This document shows, piece by piece, positions 39,480 to 55,543 of a stretch of 64,000 nucleotides of DNA. The notes beneath the pieces are model-generated. The model was not told where the DNA came from and did no database searches. It saw only the letters and a list, made by a program, of their open reading frames with translations. A program made the position numbers and the translations under genes. The stretch spans positions 124,001-188,000 of the forward strand of contig CAJNOJ010000015.1 in the NCBI GenBank assembly GCA_905250025.1, in the 5' to 3' direction. The stretch comes from Adineta ricciae (lineage: Eukaryota > Rotifera > Eurotatoria > Adinetida > Adinetidae). How positions within the stretch are numbered: position 1 is the first letter of the stretch; each line of letters begins with the position of its first letter.

Positions 39480-39697
39480 AGATCAATCTCTGTCACAAGC
39501 TTCTAGTCATTAAAGTTTTTCTGAATCCAATTCAATTAATCAGTCTAAAGTGCACTTTTTCTCTATCTAAGTGACATAAATAAAAAATCATTTCGAAAGA
39601 AGTTATAATTGAATTTGTCTTTTGTTGAGAGAATGCATGTCGAAGTTGATTAACAGGAAAACAAAATAGTCGCTTCGAAATAGATCTGATCGAAAGT

Positions 39698-41192
39698 ATG
39701 GGGTACATGATCGTTTTGTTTGCAATAGCTTTTCAATTTTTGCCAATCGTCTCCATTAATGAAACTTGTTGGCCAACTGCAAATAATTTAACGTGCGTTC
39801 TAAACGATCTACTCTTGGGATATAATAAATATCAACGGCCTAATTATACTGGTAGAAATTATGTTCCGAAAATTGTAAAAAGAAAAAATCGACTATTTTA
39901 GGAGATCCAATTCGCGTAGAAGTTTACTTAATGATTATTAGTCTTGGACCAATTTTTGAATTGGATATGGTTTGTAATCGATGAGTTTTTATTCGATCAT
40001 TCTTTATTTTTTGTTATTCAAAAATCTCAGTCATTCACAATGAATCTGTTTTTTCGACAAGTATGGACTGATCAACGATTGACATTACCCAATCAAGTAT
40101 CCAACGTCGCTGTTTCAACAAAATTACTCAGGTATAATGAATCTACTGTCTTTATTTTCTAGTAAACATACATATTTGAATCCAGTGCAATATGGAAGCC
40201 TGATACCTATTTTATTAATTCGCATTCCGCTTACCTTCATACAACGCCAACATTCAATCATCTTTTACGCATATTGGAAAATGGTCGATTGCTTTACTCC
40301 AGTCGGTGTGTGTTTTTGTTATTCTTACTTAAAAAACAAGTTTTTGATGATTGTTATTTCAGTTTAACAATCAAGGCTTCTTGTTCGAACTTTTTAAAAC
40401 GATTTCCTCTTGACGTTCAACTATGTCCACTGGCATTATCTAGCTGTAAGTCGAGTCGGAATCATTTTTTGTGATACATTCGAGTCTATAAAGATGCTTA
40501 TGGAACGAAAGATATCATTTACGATTGGAAACTAAATGCAAACAATGGTGTAGAATTTGAACGATTAAAATTATCCCAATTTGATCTATTCGATCATAAA
40601 ATCTCTCGACGAGAAGTTCAATTGAATGACCGTTTGTTTTCTACTTCAATCTCGAATTCCTAGAAACGATTTACTTCATAGGAAATCATTCTGTCCTTCA
40701 ACTCGATCTTTTCATGCGCCGAAAAGCTGGGTATTATATTNTTCCAGCTGTACCGTACTTCACTGCGATCGATTACTTTTTTGTCATGTGTTATTTGTTT
40801 CTGTTTGCTTCATTAATTCAATTCACTGCTGTCCATCGTTATCTTGGCGTATGCTAAACATCCGTACAACAAAATCTTTTTGTATTATTTTTGTTATTCG
40901 TTTTTAGTATCGTCAATCAATGAAACCTGCGGAGAGTCTAAACGACCAACGAAAATCTCTTGTGTTAGAGGAAGCTATGGAGACCAATGTCAGTTTCCTA
41001 AGAAATGAAGAAAGCCATTCAACATATTTGCCGCGTCGATCGACATTCAGTGTTATTGTACAAGGTTTGCATTTAATAAGACGAAAAGCGCCTCTACATA
41101 AACTTGATGAACACGCACGCATTGGATTTCCTCTTCTATTTATTCTTTGTAATGTTATTTATTGGTTTATTCTAGTAGTTTATACCGCATAA
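39698..41192 (+). CDS. Cys-loop ligand-gated channel, GABA-A/glycine receptor type (M1-M2 missing at N)
   Basis: Pentameric ligand-gated channel subunit. Signal peptide MGYMIVLFAIAFQFLPIVS. Extracellular blocks: LLLGYNKYQRPNYT, VEVYLMIISLGPIFELDM, FTMNLFFRQVWTDQRL, IWKPDTYFINSHSAYLHT, then the Cys-loop CSNFLKRFPLDVQLC with 13 residues between cysteines. The frame continues to RRKAGYYI, where M1 begins, and then meets the N at 40741. After it comes PAVPYFTAIDYFFVMCYLFL, the pre-M3 and M3 of this family. Roughly 48 residues holding M1 and the pore-lining M2 are absent. The last exon (from about 40908) ends with M4, HARIGFPLLFILCNVIYWF. Introns of 45-65 nt join in frame. Without M2, anion selectivity is inferred only from overall similarity to GABA/glycine receptors. 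Confidence 0.85.
40741..40741. other. Single N marking missing receptor sequence
   Basis: The undefined base sits in the middle of the channel's transmembrane region, exactly where about 145 nt of expected M1-M2 coding sequence is absent. Like the N at 19540, it behaves as a placeholder for an assembly gap rather than one ambiguous base. Confidence 0.8.
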
Positions 41193-41938
41193 AGTCAATC
41201 CCTTTCGAAATATATTTGATATATAAAATATTTTGAATTAATACCAATGTGACTGACAATATTTGTACATGCTATTCGTATCGTAAATCTCACTGGCAGC
41301 ATATTTATGTAGCCATTAGTATGTTGTTGATCGAAAGAAGAAAAATTGAAAACAGATTTTTTGCCATTTTCGCTTTCGGGTGTGATTGATTGTAAAGAGA
41401 AAATTTCCTTCACAAACCACTAGCAAGGATTTGTTTATAATGATTTCGTTGGGCGAACACAACACACAAGCGTTGTCAAAATTTAAAAACGTCTTTTTGT
41501 TCTGTTGCCTTAATACTTCCTTTCTTTCTGTTCTGCTTATGATTCAACCGAACATATATGATGTAAAGAAAGTCATGCCTACTTCTTTCCAAAGAATTTA
41601 AAATTGAATGCTTAGATGTCAAGTAATGTCTGTCTAGCATAAACTCGATGTATTACGTATGTATATTCTTACATCGATTGAAATAAATATAATTGGTATA
41701 TCATCAAGGACCTTTCCATTTTTGTAGTATGTATTTGAATGAATTAAAACAAACACATGAAAAAATTCATGGTGCGTTGATCCAACTACTGAATAGCCTT
41801 AAACCAAGTATATAACAGGTTCGGATTTTTGTGTTTTGAGAAGCACATGGCTTTACTTCATTCCTAACAAATAATTTAACTCCGTATTAACGTACTTTGG
41901 CAATTATCGTTTATCTTTATGTAGATCAATTCCCAAAG
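41193..41938. other. Intergenic, no gene seen
   Basis: About 745 AT-rich bases upstream of the second adhesion-type receptor. No supported coding or RNA feature. Confidence 0.55.
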
Positions 41939-52455: not shown

Positions 52456-55400
52456 ATGTTGTGTTCATCGATTCTTTTGATGCTGTTTCTTACAGGTAAT
52501 ATATTCTACTATAATCGAGTTCTATCTAATTATCTTTTCCATGAATAAATTAAAAAATAATAACATATTTATATGTAAAATAGCAATTCTACTTCTTAAT
52601 GAACGATGAATGTCATATGCATACATCTGTTGATTTTTATTAGTTACTTATGCAGCGGAACAAAAGTGTAATCGACAACGTGTTGCAACATGGAATGCGG
52701 AACAACGATTAATCTGCGATCTACTTGATAATTATCAAGTCAAATGGGGACGGCCGGTAAAGAATATGACTGAAGACGTCGAAGTTCAATTTGGTTTACA
52801 ATTGATCCATATCAGTGACCTTGTACGTTGCACTTTTATTCGAGTTCTTGAAAACGGATTCCCTTGTCTAGGATGAGAAAAATCAAGTATTGATCACTAA
52901 TCAATGGCAAATCTATGTATGTGTTTAATCGGATAGGTTCTATTTCGTATGAAATTTGATTTTCTTCTTGATAGGAATGGCAGGACGAAGCATTAACATG
53001 GTAGGCGTCGGTTTTGATCTTTCTTTTTTTTTACTTATTCCATTGTATTTTAGGGATCCAGAATATTATGGTAAATGCAATCGAACGGAAAATAGATGAA
53101 CACAAAAACAAGCTTATTCTTTTAGATGATCTTCAAGATATACGTTTACCGATCAAACGTATTTGGCAGCCAGATGTCACGTTGTATAACTAGTAAGCCT
53201 CCTATTAATAACGAAGCATCGATTCGAGAAATATCCCAAAAGACTAGTTTAACTAATCAACCATCTGTAGCTCATATTTGTTGTTGAGAGAAGAAATTTA
53301 TCTTAAGGATATATTAGCGATTAATTTGCTTAACTCAATTTGGAAATGTTTATTCTAAACTTGTTTAACCTTGATCGTATGTATGTTATCTTCTAGTGCC
53401 GATACACGACTGGAAGAAAAACGTGAAGTTCTAGCTGTTGTGTATTACAATGGAACCGTTGTTTGGAAACCAATGTCAATTTTTAAGTCAACATGTCAAA
53501 TTGACATTCGGTAATTGACCTTTCTTCTCTTATTACCGACGTCTGACGAGGAAACTACCCCAAGTGATTCATGCCAATTAGTCCCATATTTCGGCCATGT
53601 GTGTGACTCAGCGAGATTAAGAAAAATCTAAAATAGTTCGGGCACACAGCTTATTAGATGAGAGTTATGGTCATTTTATTAAATTTTTGGTCTATTCATG
53701 AATATTTACTAGAGATTCGAATGAAGAGATTTCTGCCTGAAATTGTACTCAAAGATAGTCTTTATCAAGCCTCAGATGCTCTAAAAATTTCAGCTCAAAC
53801 TTACTTTCCTTTCTTGAAATACTGAATTTTTAAAAATTAGTCATTTATCACATAATTGTCTCAAAAATCGACTGTACGTGAAAATGAGATATTTCAAGAA
53901 AGAAAAGTAAGTTTGAGCTGAAATTTTTAGAGCATCTGAAGCTTGATAAAGACTATCTTTGAGTACAATTTCAGGCAGAAATCTCTTCATTCGAATCTCT
54001 AGTAAATATTCACGAGTAGACTAAAAATTTAATAAAATGGTCAGAACTCTCGTCTAATAAGCTATGTGCCCGAACTATTTTAGATTTTTCTTAATCTCGC
54101 TGACTCACACACATAGCCAACATATGGGACTAATTGGCATGAATCACTTGGGGTAGTTTCCTCATGAGTTATTCTTTATCATTGATCTCATTAGACGGTT
54201 CCCATACGATCGGCAGAATTGCTCAATGAAATTCGGTACATGGACGTATGATAGTTCCAAAGTGAATCTTAATTTCTATCGTGATATTCATCAATTCGAC
54301 TTGAGATCGTATGTTAAATCCAACGAATGGACGATTTTAGAAAACTACGCCAAACGTAATACCGAAAAATACGGTAAGCTGAAAATGATCTTGTCGGAAG
54401 GAACTAGTTTTTCGGCGAAGTTCAGATTGCTGTCCGGAAATTTATGTTGACTTGAAATTCTATATCATACTTGAACGGCGAGGTGGATTTTATAATTACA
54501 TTCTTATTTTACCATGCGTACTTCTCTCCTGCTTGACATGCATACTATTTTGGCTACCTGTAAGTGAATTTATTCGAATGAAGAGTGATGTATCAGGAGT
54601 GGTTCTTTTTTTAGCCGGAAAGTCCGTCGAAGTTGGTCCTTGGTGAGCTGAAGATAAACTCTTTCATGATAACCTTCTTTTCCTCTGTTGCATTCACATA
54701 TAGGAATGAATATATTTACTTCATTTTTCGTCTTGTTACTTCTATTATATAAGAATATGCCTTCCAATGCTGAACATATTCCACGAATAGGTAAAGACAA
54801 AGTCGTTCTCTTCCGGCATTTAATTATTTCCTTTCATTGAAAACGGAAGTCTATGTTATTTACTCGTATAGGTGCGTACTACTGTTTAAATATGGGCATG
54901 ATCGCTACATCGACATTTCTCTGTACAATTGTCGTTCATATCTATTTCCGTGGAAGTGGACCGATGCCTGTTATATTACGAAAAGTATTTTGGCCAAAAG
55001 CAAAATAGTGGAGTATCAGATGAACTTTTGTTTTTGATCTAGGTTTTTCTCGAGTGTTTGGCACGACTTTTCTGTATGGTACCGCATACGGGTTCATATC
55101 AGCAGCATGCAGTCAACGGTCTCGTTCCCCCTGTGAAAGCCACGTGCGACGGTGATAAATTTGAGAAATTTGAGTTACTCAAAGAACGGTTTAAAACATT
55201 CGGTGATAAACGTATTATAACAACGAACGATGATTCAAATGATGAAGCATTAGAAATGACTGACGACGATCATCATCATCATCAACAACAACAACACGCA
55301 CAGATACTAAATCAACAAATCCAACAGCAAATAACAGCGTCGATTGCATTCATGACTGTGGAGACAGATTTGAAAGAAATACGTGATTTTCTTCGAACAA

Positions 55401-55543
55401 CACGAAAACGTATGGAAGATAAAGAAGCCAAAGCGAAAACAATTAACGATTGGAAACAAGTCGCACTTGTACTTGATCGAACTTTCTTTTTCATCTACTT
55501 ATCTGCTATAATTATCTCTCTTGCTGCGATGTTCCCTCGATAG
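52456..55543 (+). CDS. Nicotinic acetylcholine receptor alpha-type subunit with atypical pore
   Basis: Cys-loop receptor subunit. Signal peptide MLCSSILLMLFLTVTYAA, then QRLICDLLDNYQVKWGRPVK. Ligand-site loops are intact: loop A Tyr (PDVTLYNY), loop B Trp (KFGTWTYD) and loop C with vicinal cysteines (KYDCCPEIYVDL), which defines an alpha subunit. The Cys-loop is CQIDIRRFPYDRQNC. M1 is ILPCVLLSCLTCILFWLP. M2 is abnormal: PESPSK then LVLGMNIFTSFFVLLLLLYK, so the usual GEK filter is PSK, the 9' Leu is Thr and the 20' Glu is Lys. M3 is LNMGMIATSTFLCTIVVHIY. The cytoplasmic loop has His/Gln runs. M4 is VLDRTFFFIYLSAIIISLAA. About a dozen introns; the one splitting the Cys-loop (53511-54194) carries a foldback element. 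All splice junctions keep the frame. Confidence 0.9.
53543..54168. mobile_element. Foldback / MITE-like inverted-repeat element in an intron
   Basis: Two arms of 278 bp (53543-53820 and 53891-54168) are reverse complements with about 94% identity (16 differences counted), flanking a 70-bp loop. Outer ends read CTGACGAGGAAACTACCCC and, reversed, CTCATGAGGAAACTACCCC. There is no coding capacity, as expected of a non-autonomous DNA element. It lies inside a 684-nt intron; removing its 626 bp leaves 58 nt, the usual intron length here. No clear target-site duplication was seen, so the exact ends may be off by a few bases and the superfamily is unknown. Confidence 0.85.

What the first reader, a model, noticed from the sequence alone, without database searches (positions are those of the whole stretch)
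54195..54800. Alpha-type nicotinic subunit with intact acetylcholine site but a rewritten pore (PSK filter, 9' Thr, 20' Lys)
Seen: LPPESPSK-LVLGMNIFTSFFVLLLLLYK aligns without gaps to the usual LPSDCGEK-M2. The -2' Gly is Pro, the -1' Glu is Ser, 2' is Val, the 9' Leu gate is Thr, and the 20' Glu is Lys. Known: the -1' Glu ring is required for cation selectivity; anion channels carry a Pro-Ala-Arg filter; Leu-to-Thr at 9' in alpha7 slows desensitisation and raises agonist sensitivity. Inferred: this subunit may form an acetylcholine-gated anion channel, or a channel with unusual gating. Pro replaces Gly here rather than being inserted, so it is not simply the classic anion filter.
Basis: partly seen in the sequence, partly recalled or inferred. 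Interest (0 to 1): 0.78.

Follow-up and report, generated by a model that had tools for sequence, protein, structure and literature searches.

The report
Acetylcholine receptor with chloride-channel-type pore
A nicotinic acetylcholine receptor gene in an animal genome keeps the normal transmitter-binding site but carries a pore of the kind that lets chloride through, so it is probably an inhibitory acetylcholine receptor, and its pore also lacks the usual leucine gate.

Summary
Window 52456-55543 (+) is a complete 13-exon, 509-residue alpha-type nicotinic subunit, all introns GT-AG, with an intact acetylcholine box and the M2 segment PPES-PSK-LVLGMNIFTSFFVLLLLLYK. A probable allele (C9) and a diverged duplicate (C30) encode the same M2; against C30 it is 30/30 identical although synonymous sites are near saturation. 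So this pore is under strong selection. The nearest paralogues by search rank and membrane-domain identity are non-alpha subunits (C26, C34, C22) with a PAK filter and 9' Ser. PAK/PAR is the filter reported for schistosome acetylcholine-gated chloride channels. PSK and PAK form one clade without the M2 columns, less firmly on the extracellular domain alone. Best reading: the ligand-binding subunit of an acetylcholine-gated anion channel, probably partnered by PAK. A discussion passage (PMC6800317) says alpha7 became anionic with an inserted proline, loss of the Glu, and 13' Thr or 9' Thr, so the 9' Thr may belong to the anion pore. The 20' Lys is not unusual. Selectivity was not measured.

The parts
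52456..55543 (+). Whole gene, 13 exons, 1530-base CDS including stop, 509 aa, alpha-type nicotinic subunit
   Evidence: open frame over 13 exons with all 12 introns GT-AG, two Pfam channel domains; aligner returns the same junctions when given this protein
52456..52495 (+). Exon 1, start codon and hydrophobic N-terminus (putative signal peptide, not tested)
52644..53510 (+). Exons 2-7 with their introns: ligand-binding domain up to the first half of the Cys-loop, with loop D Trp and loop A Tyr (LYN)
54195..54373 (+). Exon 8: second Cys-loop cysteine, loop B Trp (GTWTYD), up to the loop C Tyr
54426..54559 (+). Exon 9: vicinal cysteines (DCCPEIY), M1
54615..54642 (+). Exon 10: selectivity filter PESPSK and M2 1'-3'
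54704..54790 (+). Exon 11: rest of M2 with 9' Thr and 20' Lys, M2-M3 loop
54872..54984 (+). Exon 12: M3
55043..55543 (+). Exon 13: M3-M4 loop and M4, stop codon
53543..54168 (.). Foldback element inside intron 7 (arms 53543-53830 and 53881-54168); not part of the channel, absent from the C9 copy

Best explanation
The gene encodes the acetylcholine-binding (alpha-type) subunit of an inhibitory, anion-conducting nicotinic receptor. Acetylcholine binds the intact aromatic box under the vicinal-cysteine loop and opens the pore. At the inner end the Glu ring is missing and Pro-Ser-Lys takes its place, so the filter no longer favours cations; the hydroxyl at 9' replaces a greasy ring in mid-pore and may help chloride shed water. 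The likely partner is the non-alpha PAK subunit encoded elsewhere in the genome. Shown: the gene, its M2, its conservation, the PAK relatives, the intact ligand box. Inferred: acetylcholine as agonist, anion selectivity, co-assembly, inhibitory role.
For: Intact alpha-type binding residues. -1' Glu absent, with Pro at -2'. One group with PAK non-alpha subunits: support 100/99 on 307 columns without the M2 segment, 90/94 on the extracellular domain alone. PAR or PAK is reported for schistosome ACCs (passage); there SmACC-1 is alpha-type and SmACC-2 non-alpha, and SmACC-1 formed a cholinergic chloride channel by iodide flux (passages): the same alpha plus non-alpha pattern as here. M2 30/30 identical between duplicates at overall dS about 1.6 and dN/dS 0.06. 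Pro, no Glu and 9' Thr together are reported to make alpha7 anionic (passage, citing Corringer 1999, which I did not see).
Against: No recording. The filter reads Pro-Ser, not Pro-Ala. In alpha7 the Pro was inserted, not substituted; proline alone or with one other change gave non-functional receptors, and loss of the Glu without the Pro left the channel cationic (passages). The -4' Glu is kept. In extracellular identity PAK (41%) is no closer to PSK than many GEK subunits (41-44%), and on the extracellular tree the nearest rows by path outside the PSK copies are C117 and C184, not PAK. No sequence of a proven anion-selective nicotinic subunit could be aligned, so orthology with snail or fluke channels is untested. 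No expression data.
Confidence: 0.72

Rival explanations
1. A cation-selective or poorly selective nicotinic channel with reduced calcium permeability: loss of the -1' Glu alone is not enough to flip selectivity, and the Pro substitution is only structural.
For: Passages report that alpha7 E-1'A alone stayed cationic in experiments and that the Pro had to be inserted; here the linker has the same length as in GEK subunits and the -4' Glu is kept.
Against: No acid remains at -1' in the PSK or the PAK group, PAK is a reported schistosome chloride-channel filter, and 5-HT3 with the same Glu loss became slightly anionic (passage).
Confidence: 0.13
2. A channel gated by something other than acetylcholine, as in cephalopod chemotactile receptors derived from nicotinic subunits.
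For: Spiralian nicotinic families are expanded and some members do not respond to acetylcholine (passages on Alpo4 and on octopus and squid receptors).
Against: The box positions read and the vicinal cysteines are those of acetylcholine-binding alpha subunits, and the extracellular domain is 210/210 identical to the C9 copy and 188/210 to C30.
Confidence: 0.1
3. An accessory subunit that never forms a pore by itself and only tunes ordinary cation receptors when it joins GEK subunits, giving mixed filter rings.
For: Heteromers are usual among nicotinic subunits (general knowledge, no call).
Against: A PAK group with a matching filter and 9' hydroxyl exists in the same clade.
Confidence: 0.04
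4. Artefact: pseudogene, assembly error or mis-spliced exon.
For: The filter sits on a 28-base exon.
Against: Three genomic copies keep the same exon borders around it and the same M2 under strong purifying selection; no alternative GEK exon between M1 and M3.
Confidence: 0.01

Closest known systems
Nicotinic acetylcholine-gated chloride channels of Schistosoma mansoni (SmACC-1, SmACC-2) and the Lymnaea anion-selective nicotinic subunits
   Same: Nicotinic subunits with a Pro-containing filter lacking the -1' Glu; SmACC-1 alpha-type and SmACC-2 non-alpha, as with PSK and PAK here (passages).
   Different: Filter is Pro-Ser-Lys, not Pro-Ala-Lys/Arg, in this subunit; 9' Thr. Their own 9' residues could not be checked because no sequence was at hand.
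Vertebrate neuronal alpha-4 (PDB 6ur8_A) and other cation-selective nicotinic alpha subunits
   Same: 43% identity in the extracellular domain; same aromatic box residues and vicinal cysteines.
   Different: GEK filter, 9' Leu and 20' Glu in 6ur8_A; only 10/30 identity in the M2 segment.
Engineered alpha7 made anion-selective (proline insertion, Glu to Ala, V13'T or L9'T)
   Same: Proline at the filter, neutral -1', Thr at 9' (passage).
   Different: Pro inserted in the mutant, substituted here; Ser, not Ala, at -1'; natural, with a paralogous group that has 9' Ser.

Membership tests
Nicotinic acetylcholine receptor, alpha-type subunit | Cys-loop with 13 residues between cysteines, ligand-binding and four-helix membrane domains | tested here: met
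   C-QIDIRRFPYDRQN-C read from the model; both Pfam domains over the cut-off
Nicotinic acetylcholine receptor, alpha-type subunit | Vicinal cysteines and the five aromatic box residues | tested here: met
   W55, Y93, W149, YDCCPEIY (numbering recalled)
Nicotinic acetylcholine receptor, alpha-type subunit | Opened by acetylcholine | not testable with these tools
   needs expression and recording
Nicotinic acetylcholine-gated chloride channel (ACC, snail and fluke type) | Pro-Ala motif at the filter, called a defining feature in PMC4055736 | tested here: not met
   Pro is present but -1' is Ser, not Ala, in all 3 copies; the 3 PAK paralogues do meet it
Nicotinic acetylcholine-gated chloride channel (ACC, snail and fluke type) | Absence of the -1' Glu ring | tested here: met
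Nicotinic acetylcholine-gated chloride channel (ACC, snail and fluke type) | Falls in one clade with the snail and fluke ACC subunits | not testable with these tools
   no such sequence was reachable; only the clade with the own genome's PAK subunits was shown
Nicotinic acetylcholine-gated chloride channel (ACC, snail and fluke type) | Chloride permeability | not testable with these tools
   needs reversal potential or halide flux
GABA/glycine/glutamate-class chloride channel | One residue more between M1 proline and 0' than in nicotinic subunits (recalled) | tested here: not met
   spacing 21 here; 22 in the single comparison gene, C31
GABA/glycine/glutamate-class chloride channel | Closest relatives lie in that class | tested here: not met
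   the 60 best of 349 PDB matches shown are nicotinic or 5-HT3 chains; the best genome matches carry nicotinic-type features

The most novel reading that the evidence does not exclude
PSK and PAK subunits co-assemble into an acetylcholine-gated chloride channel in which no 9' position holds the usual leucine: every one is Thr or Ser. Nature would then have combined the same kinds of change that were needed in the laboratory to turn alpha7 into an anion channel (proline, neutral filter, hydroxyl in mid-pore), and the receptor would be unusually sensitive and slow to desensitise, or gated elsewhere in the pore.
Probability: 0.4. Interest if true: 0.7.

Novelty: new variant of a known kind. Interest (0 to 1): 0.56.

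Why it matters
Anion-selective nicotinic receptors are known from snails and flukes. Because the filter varies (PSK beside PAK) while the 9' hydroxyl is shared, the pair offers a natural test of which pore residues are needed for charge selection, and of how a nicotinic receptor shuts without its leucine gate.

Tried and rejected
Considered and rejected: mis-splicing or a mutually exclusive GEK exon; pseudogene; membership of the GABA/glutamate class; 20' Lys as a sign of anion selectivity (one search shows it in GEK subunits). Led nowhere: the Lymnaea paper is not held; the listing for rotifer, nicotinic acetylcholine receptor and chloride channel gave 3 papers, none on the subject by title; bdelloid with acetylcholine receptor and ion channel gave 1, on the chaetognath genome; rotifer with cholinergic, acetylcholine, muscle and nicotine gave 2, on neonicotinoids and anatoxin-a. 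In PMC6896357, on lophotrochozoan nicotinic receptors, the words rotifer, Adineta, Brachionus and TM2 do not occur, and anion occurs once, in the reference list. By my reading the C19c and C16 models, and the first residues of the C26 and C34 models, contain doubtful stretches; the loop C columns of C19c should not be relied on. In one search the C117 row matched a spurious PSK in the extracellular domain; its true filter is GEK.

Full report
WHAT IS THERE. The region holds a complete gene, larger than the span given. A model with 13 exons runs from 52456 to 55543 on the + strand and encodes 509 residues; all 12 introns are GT-AG, 9 of the 12 being 49-81 bases long. The protein matches the Pfam ligand-binding domain at E 1.4e-60 and the membrane domain at 3.2e-28. 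Its best solved relatives are nicotinic subunits, led by alpha-4 (6ur8_A, E 7.9e-85), and the alignment has no gap from M1 through M3.

THE BINDING SITE. The intron between exons 8 and 9 splits a loop C codon; joined, it reads YDCCPEIY. With Trp at 55, Tyr at 93, Trp at 149 and both loop C tyrosines, the principal-face residues of an acetylcholine site are present, and Trp 55 of the complementary face too (the numbering is the usual one, recalled).

IS THE PORE REAL? Two further copies exist in the genome. C9 carries a probable allele, 94.6-94.7% identical in DNA over two aligned stretches, with 500 of 506 aligned residues identical and no change in the extracellular domain (210 of 210) or M1-M3 (96 of 96). 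C30 carries an older duplicate with 423 of 496 residues identical under the alignment (428 of 495, by another aligner), dS about 1.63 and dN/dS 0.06; its first exon was not recovered. The segment -6' to 23' is 30 of 30 identical, with 16 synonymous differences over about 20 synonymous sites. The intracellular loop is freer (dN/dS 0.13). This is what selection for this particular pore looks like. A hidden exon that would restore a GEK-like filter was sought in three frames from the M1 exon to the M3 exon of the three copies, with no hit.

RELATIVES IN THE SAME GENOME. A search with the first 360 residues ranked three genes on C26, C34 and C22 first by E-value (45, 45 and 42% identity; the gene's own copies rank lower only because their exons are matched one by one). 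They encode PPES-PAK-MILT(V/I)SIFSGLFLLLLLLAES: Pro-Ala-Lys filter, 9' Ser, 20' Glu, and no vicinal cysteines, so they are non-alpha subunits. I ran 32 gene models and dropped two fragments (C117b, C25b). With the window this makes 31 gene copies: PSK in 3 (window, C9, C30), PAK in 3, GEK in 20, AEK in 1 (C19c), RKK in 1 (C85), and no recognisable filter in 3 (C154a, C154b, C303). At 9' there is Thr in the 3 PSK copies, Ser in the 3 PAK copies, Leu in 19, Val in 3, Met in 3. Lys at 20' occurs in the PSK copies and in C19b and C7b, which are GEK. Fourteen further fetched loci (L061-L070, L076-L079) were not modelled. So the counts describe 31 modelled copies, not the whole family. A motif pattern for PES-P-[AS]-K-x-[VI]-x over the whole assembly found 5 places: window, C9, C22, C26 and C34, with 0 for the reversed pattern. 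It missed C30, whose Val codon is GTG, so it is not exhaustive.

TREE. With the M2 segment removed (307 columns, 29 rows; C154a, C154b and C303 were left out) PSK and PAK form one group with support 100/99. On the extracellular domain alone (210 columns) the support is 90/94, short of the program's star, and the nearest rows by path outside the PSK copies are C117 and C184a/b, not PAK. In identity the extracellular domains of PSK and PAK are no closer (41%) than PSK is to many GEK subunits (41-44%), while M1-M3 is (53-54% against at most 42%); by subtraction of the M2 segment from those counts this holds outside M2 as well (32 of 61 for C26 against 26 of 62 for C48). The grouping thus rests largely on the membrane domain, the root is a midpoint, and the program warns of long branches. 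I hold it likely, not proven.

COMPARISON WITH THE LITERATURE. From passages, not whole papers: PMC4055736 calls a Pro-Ala motif in M2 a defining feature of acetylcholine-gated chloride channels, counts five schistosome subunits with it, places them with the snail subunits in one clade within nicotinic subunits, and reports that SmACC-1 (alpha-type) made a homomeric cholinergic chloride channel while SmACC-2 lacks the vicinal cysteines. PMC9874803 gives their filter as PAR or PAK against GEK, and notes one schistosome subunit with VKK, which recalls the RKK gene C85 here. PMC6800317 states that converting alpha7 to anion selectivity needed a proline insertion along with loss of the Glu and V13'T or L9'T; that the proline alone, or with one of the Glu and V13'T changes, gave non-functional receptors; and that without it the channels stayed cationic (that paper numbers the filter one position lower). 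PMC8011927 repeats that experiments found E-1'A alone cationic, although its own simulation found inversion. PMC4548482 reports that L247T (9') in alpha7 slows desensitisation and shifts the acetylcholine curve 660-fold. The Lymnaea paper of 2005 was not available and I saw nothing of it.

READING. The PSK subunit departs from the letter of the Pro-Ala motif by Ala to Ser, both small and uncharged. It has the features one would ask of the ligand-binding partner in an anion-selective nicotinic receptor, and the genome supplies a non-alpha PAK partner. The 9' hydroxyl, shared as Ser or Thr by both groups and by none of the other 25 modelled copies, may be part of the anion pore. It would also predict high sensitivity and slow desensitisation, unless the gate has moved. 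Against this stand the substituted, not inserted, proline (spacing 21, against 22 in one GABA/glutamate-like gene), the retained -4' Glu, and the absence of any recording. Because a defining motif of the ACC family was tested and not met to the letter, I say that it works like an ACC with probability about 0.7 and do not file it as a member. Membership in the alpha-type nicotinic subunits is met by sequence.

LIMITS. There are no transcripts, no other species, no structure model. That no rotifer anion-type nicotinic receptor was found in print rests on the listings and the word search of one paper, in an open-access library only.

Noticed in passing
window 53543-54168: A foldback element (two 288-base arms, 93% complementary, 50-base spacer) sits in intron 7 and is absent from the C9 copy; the matching intron of C30 is 58 bases. 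One arm also matches C647 at 93% and C366 at 67% (a lower bound).
   Followed up: partly
L057 (C85:249800-253500): An alpha-type nicotinic gene with filter RKK: Lys at -1' and Arg at -2', with Tyr in place of Trp 55. A schistosome subunit with VKK is reported.
   Followed up: partly
L061 (C31:605300-608900): A channel that looks like the GABA/glutamate class in M1-M2 spacing but has ATNDR, an acidic filter, so possibly cation-selective.
   Followed up: no
window about 39650-41200: A second ligand-gated channel gene (ligand-domain hit at C15:164013). A single N at 40741 stands where the C9 copy (L065 1826-2031) has 206 more bases, so the window copy seems to have a shortened assembly gap there.
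   Followed up: partly
L051, L052 (C154), L055 (C303): Three channel genes with a good ligand-binding domain whose M2 begins with no GEK-like or PAR-like filter.
   Followed up: no
L048 (C19:500800-510200): Three nicotinic-type genes side by side, one with an AEK filter, 9' Val and 20' Arg.
   Followed up: no
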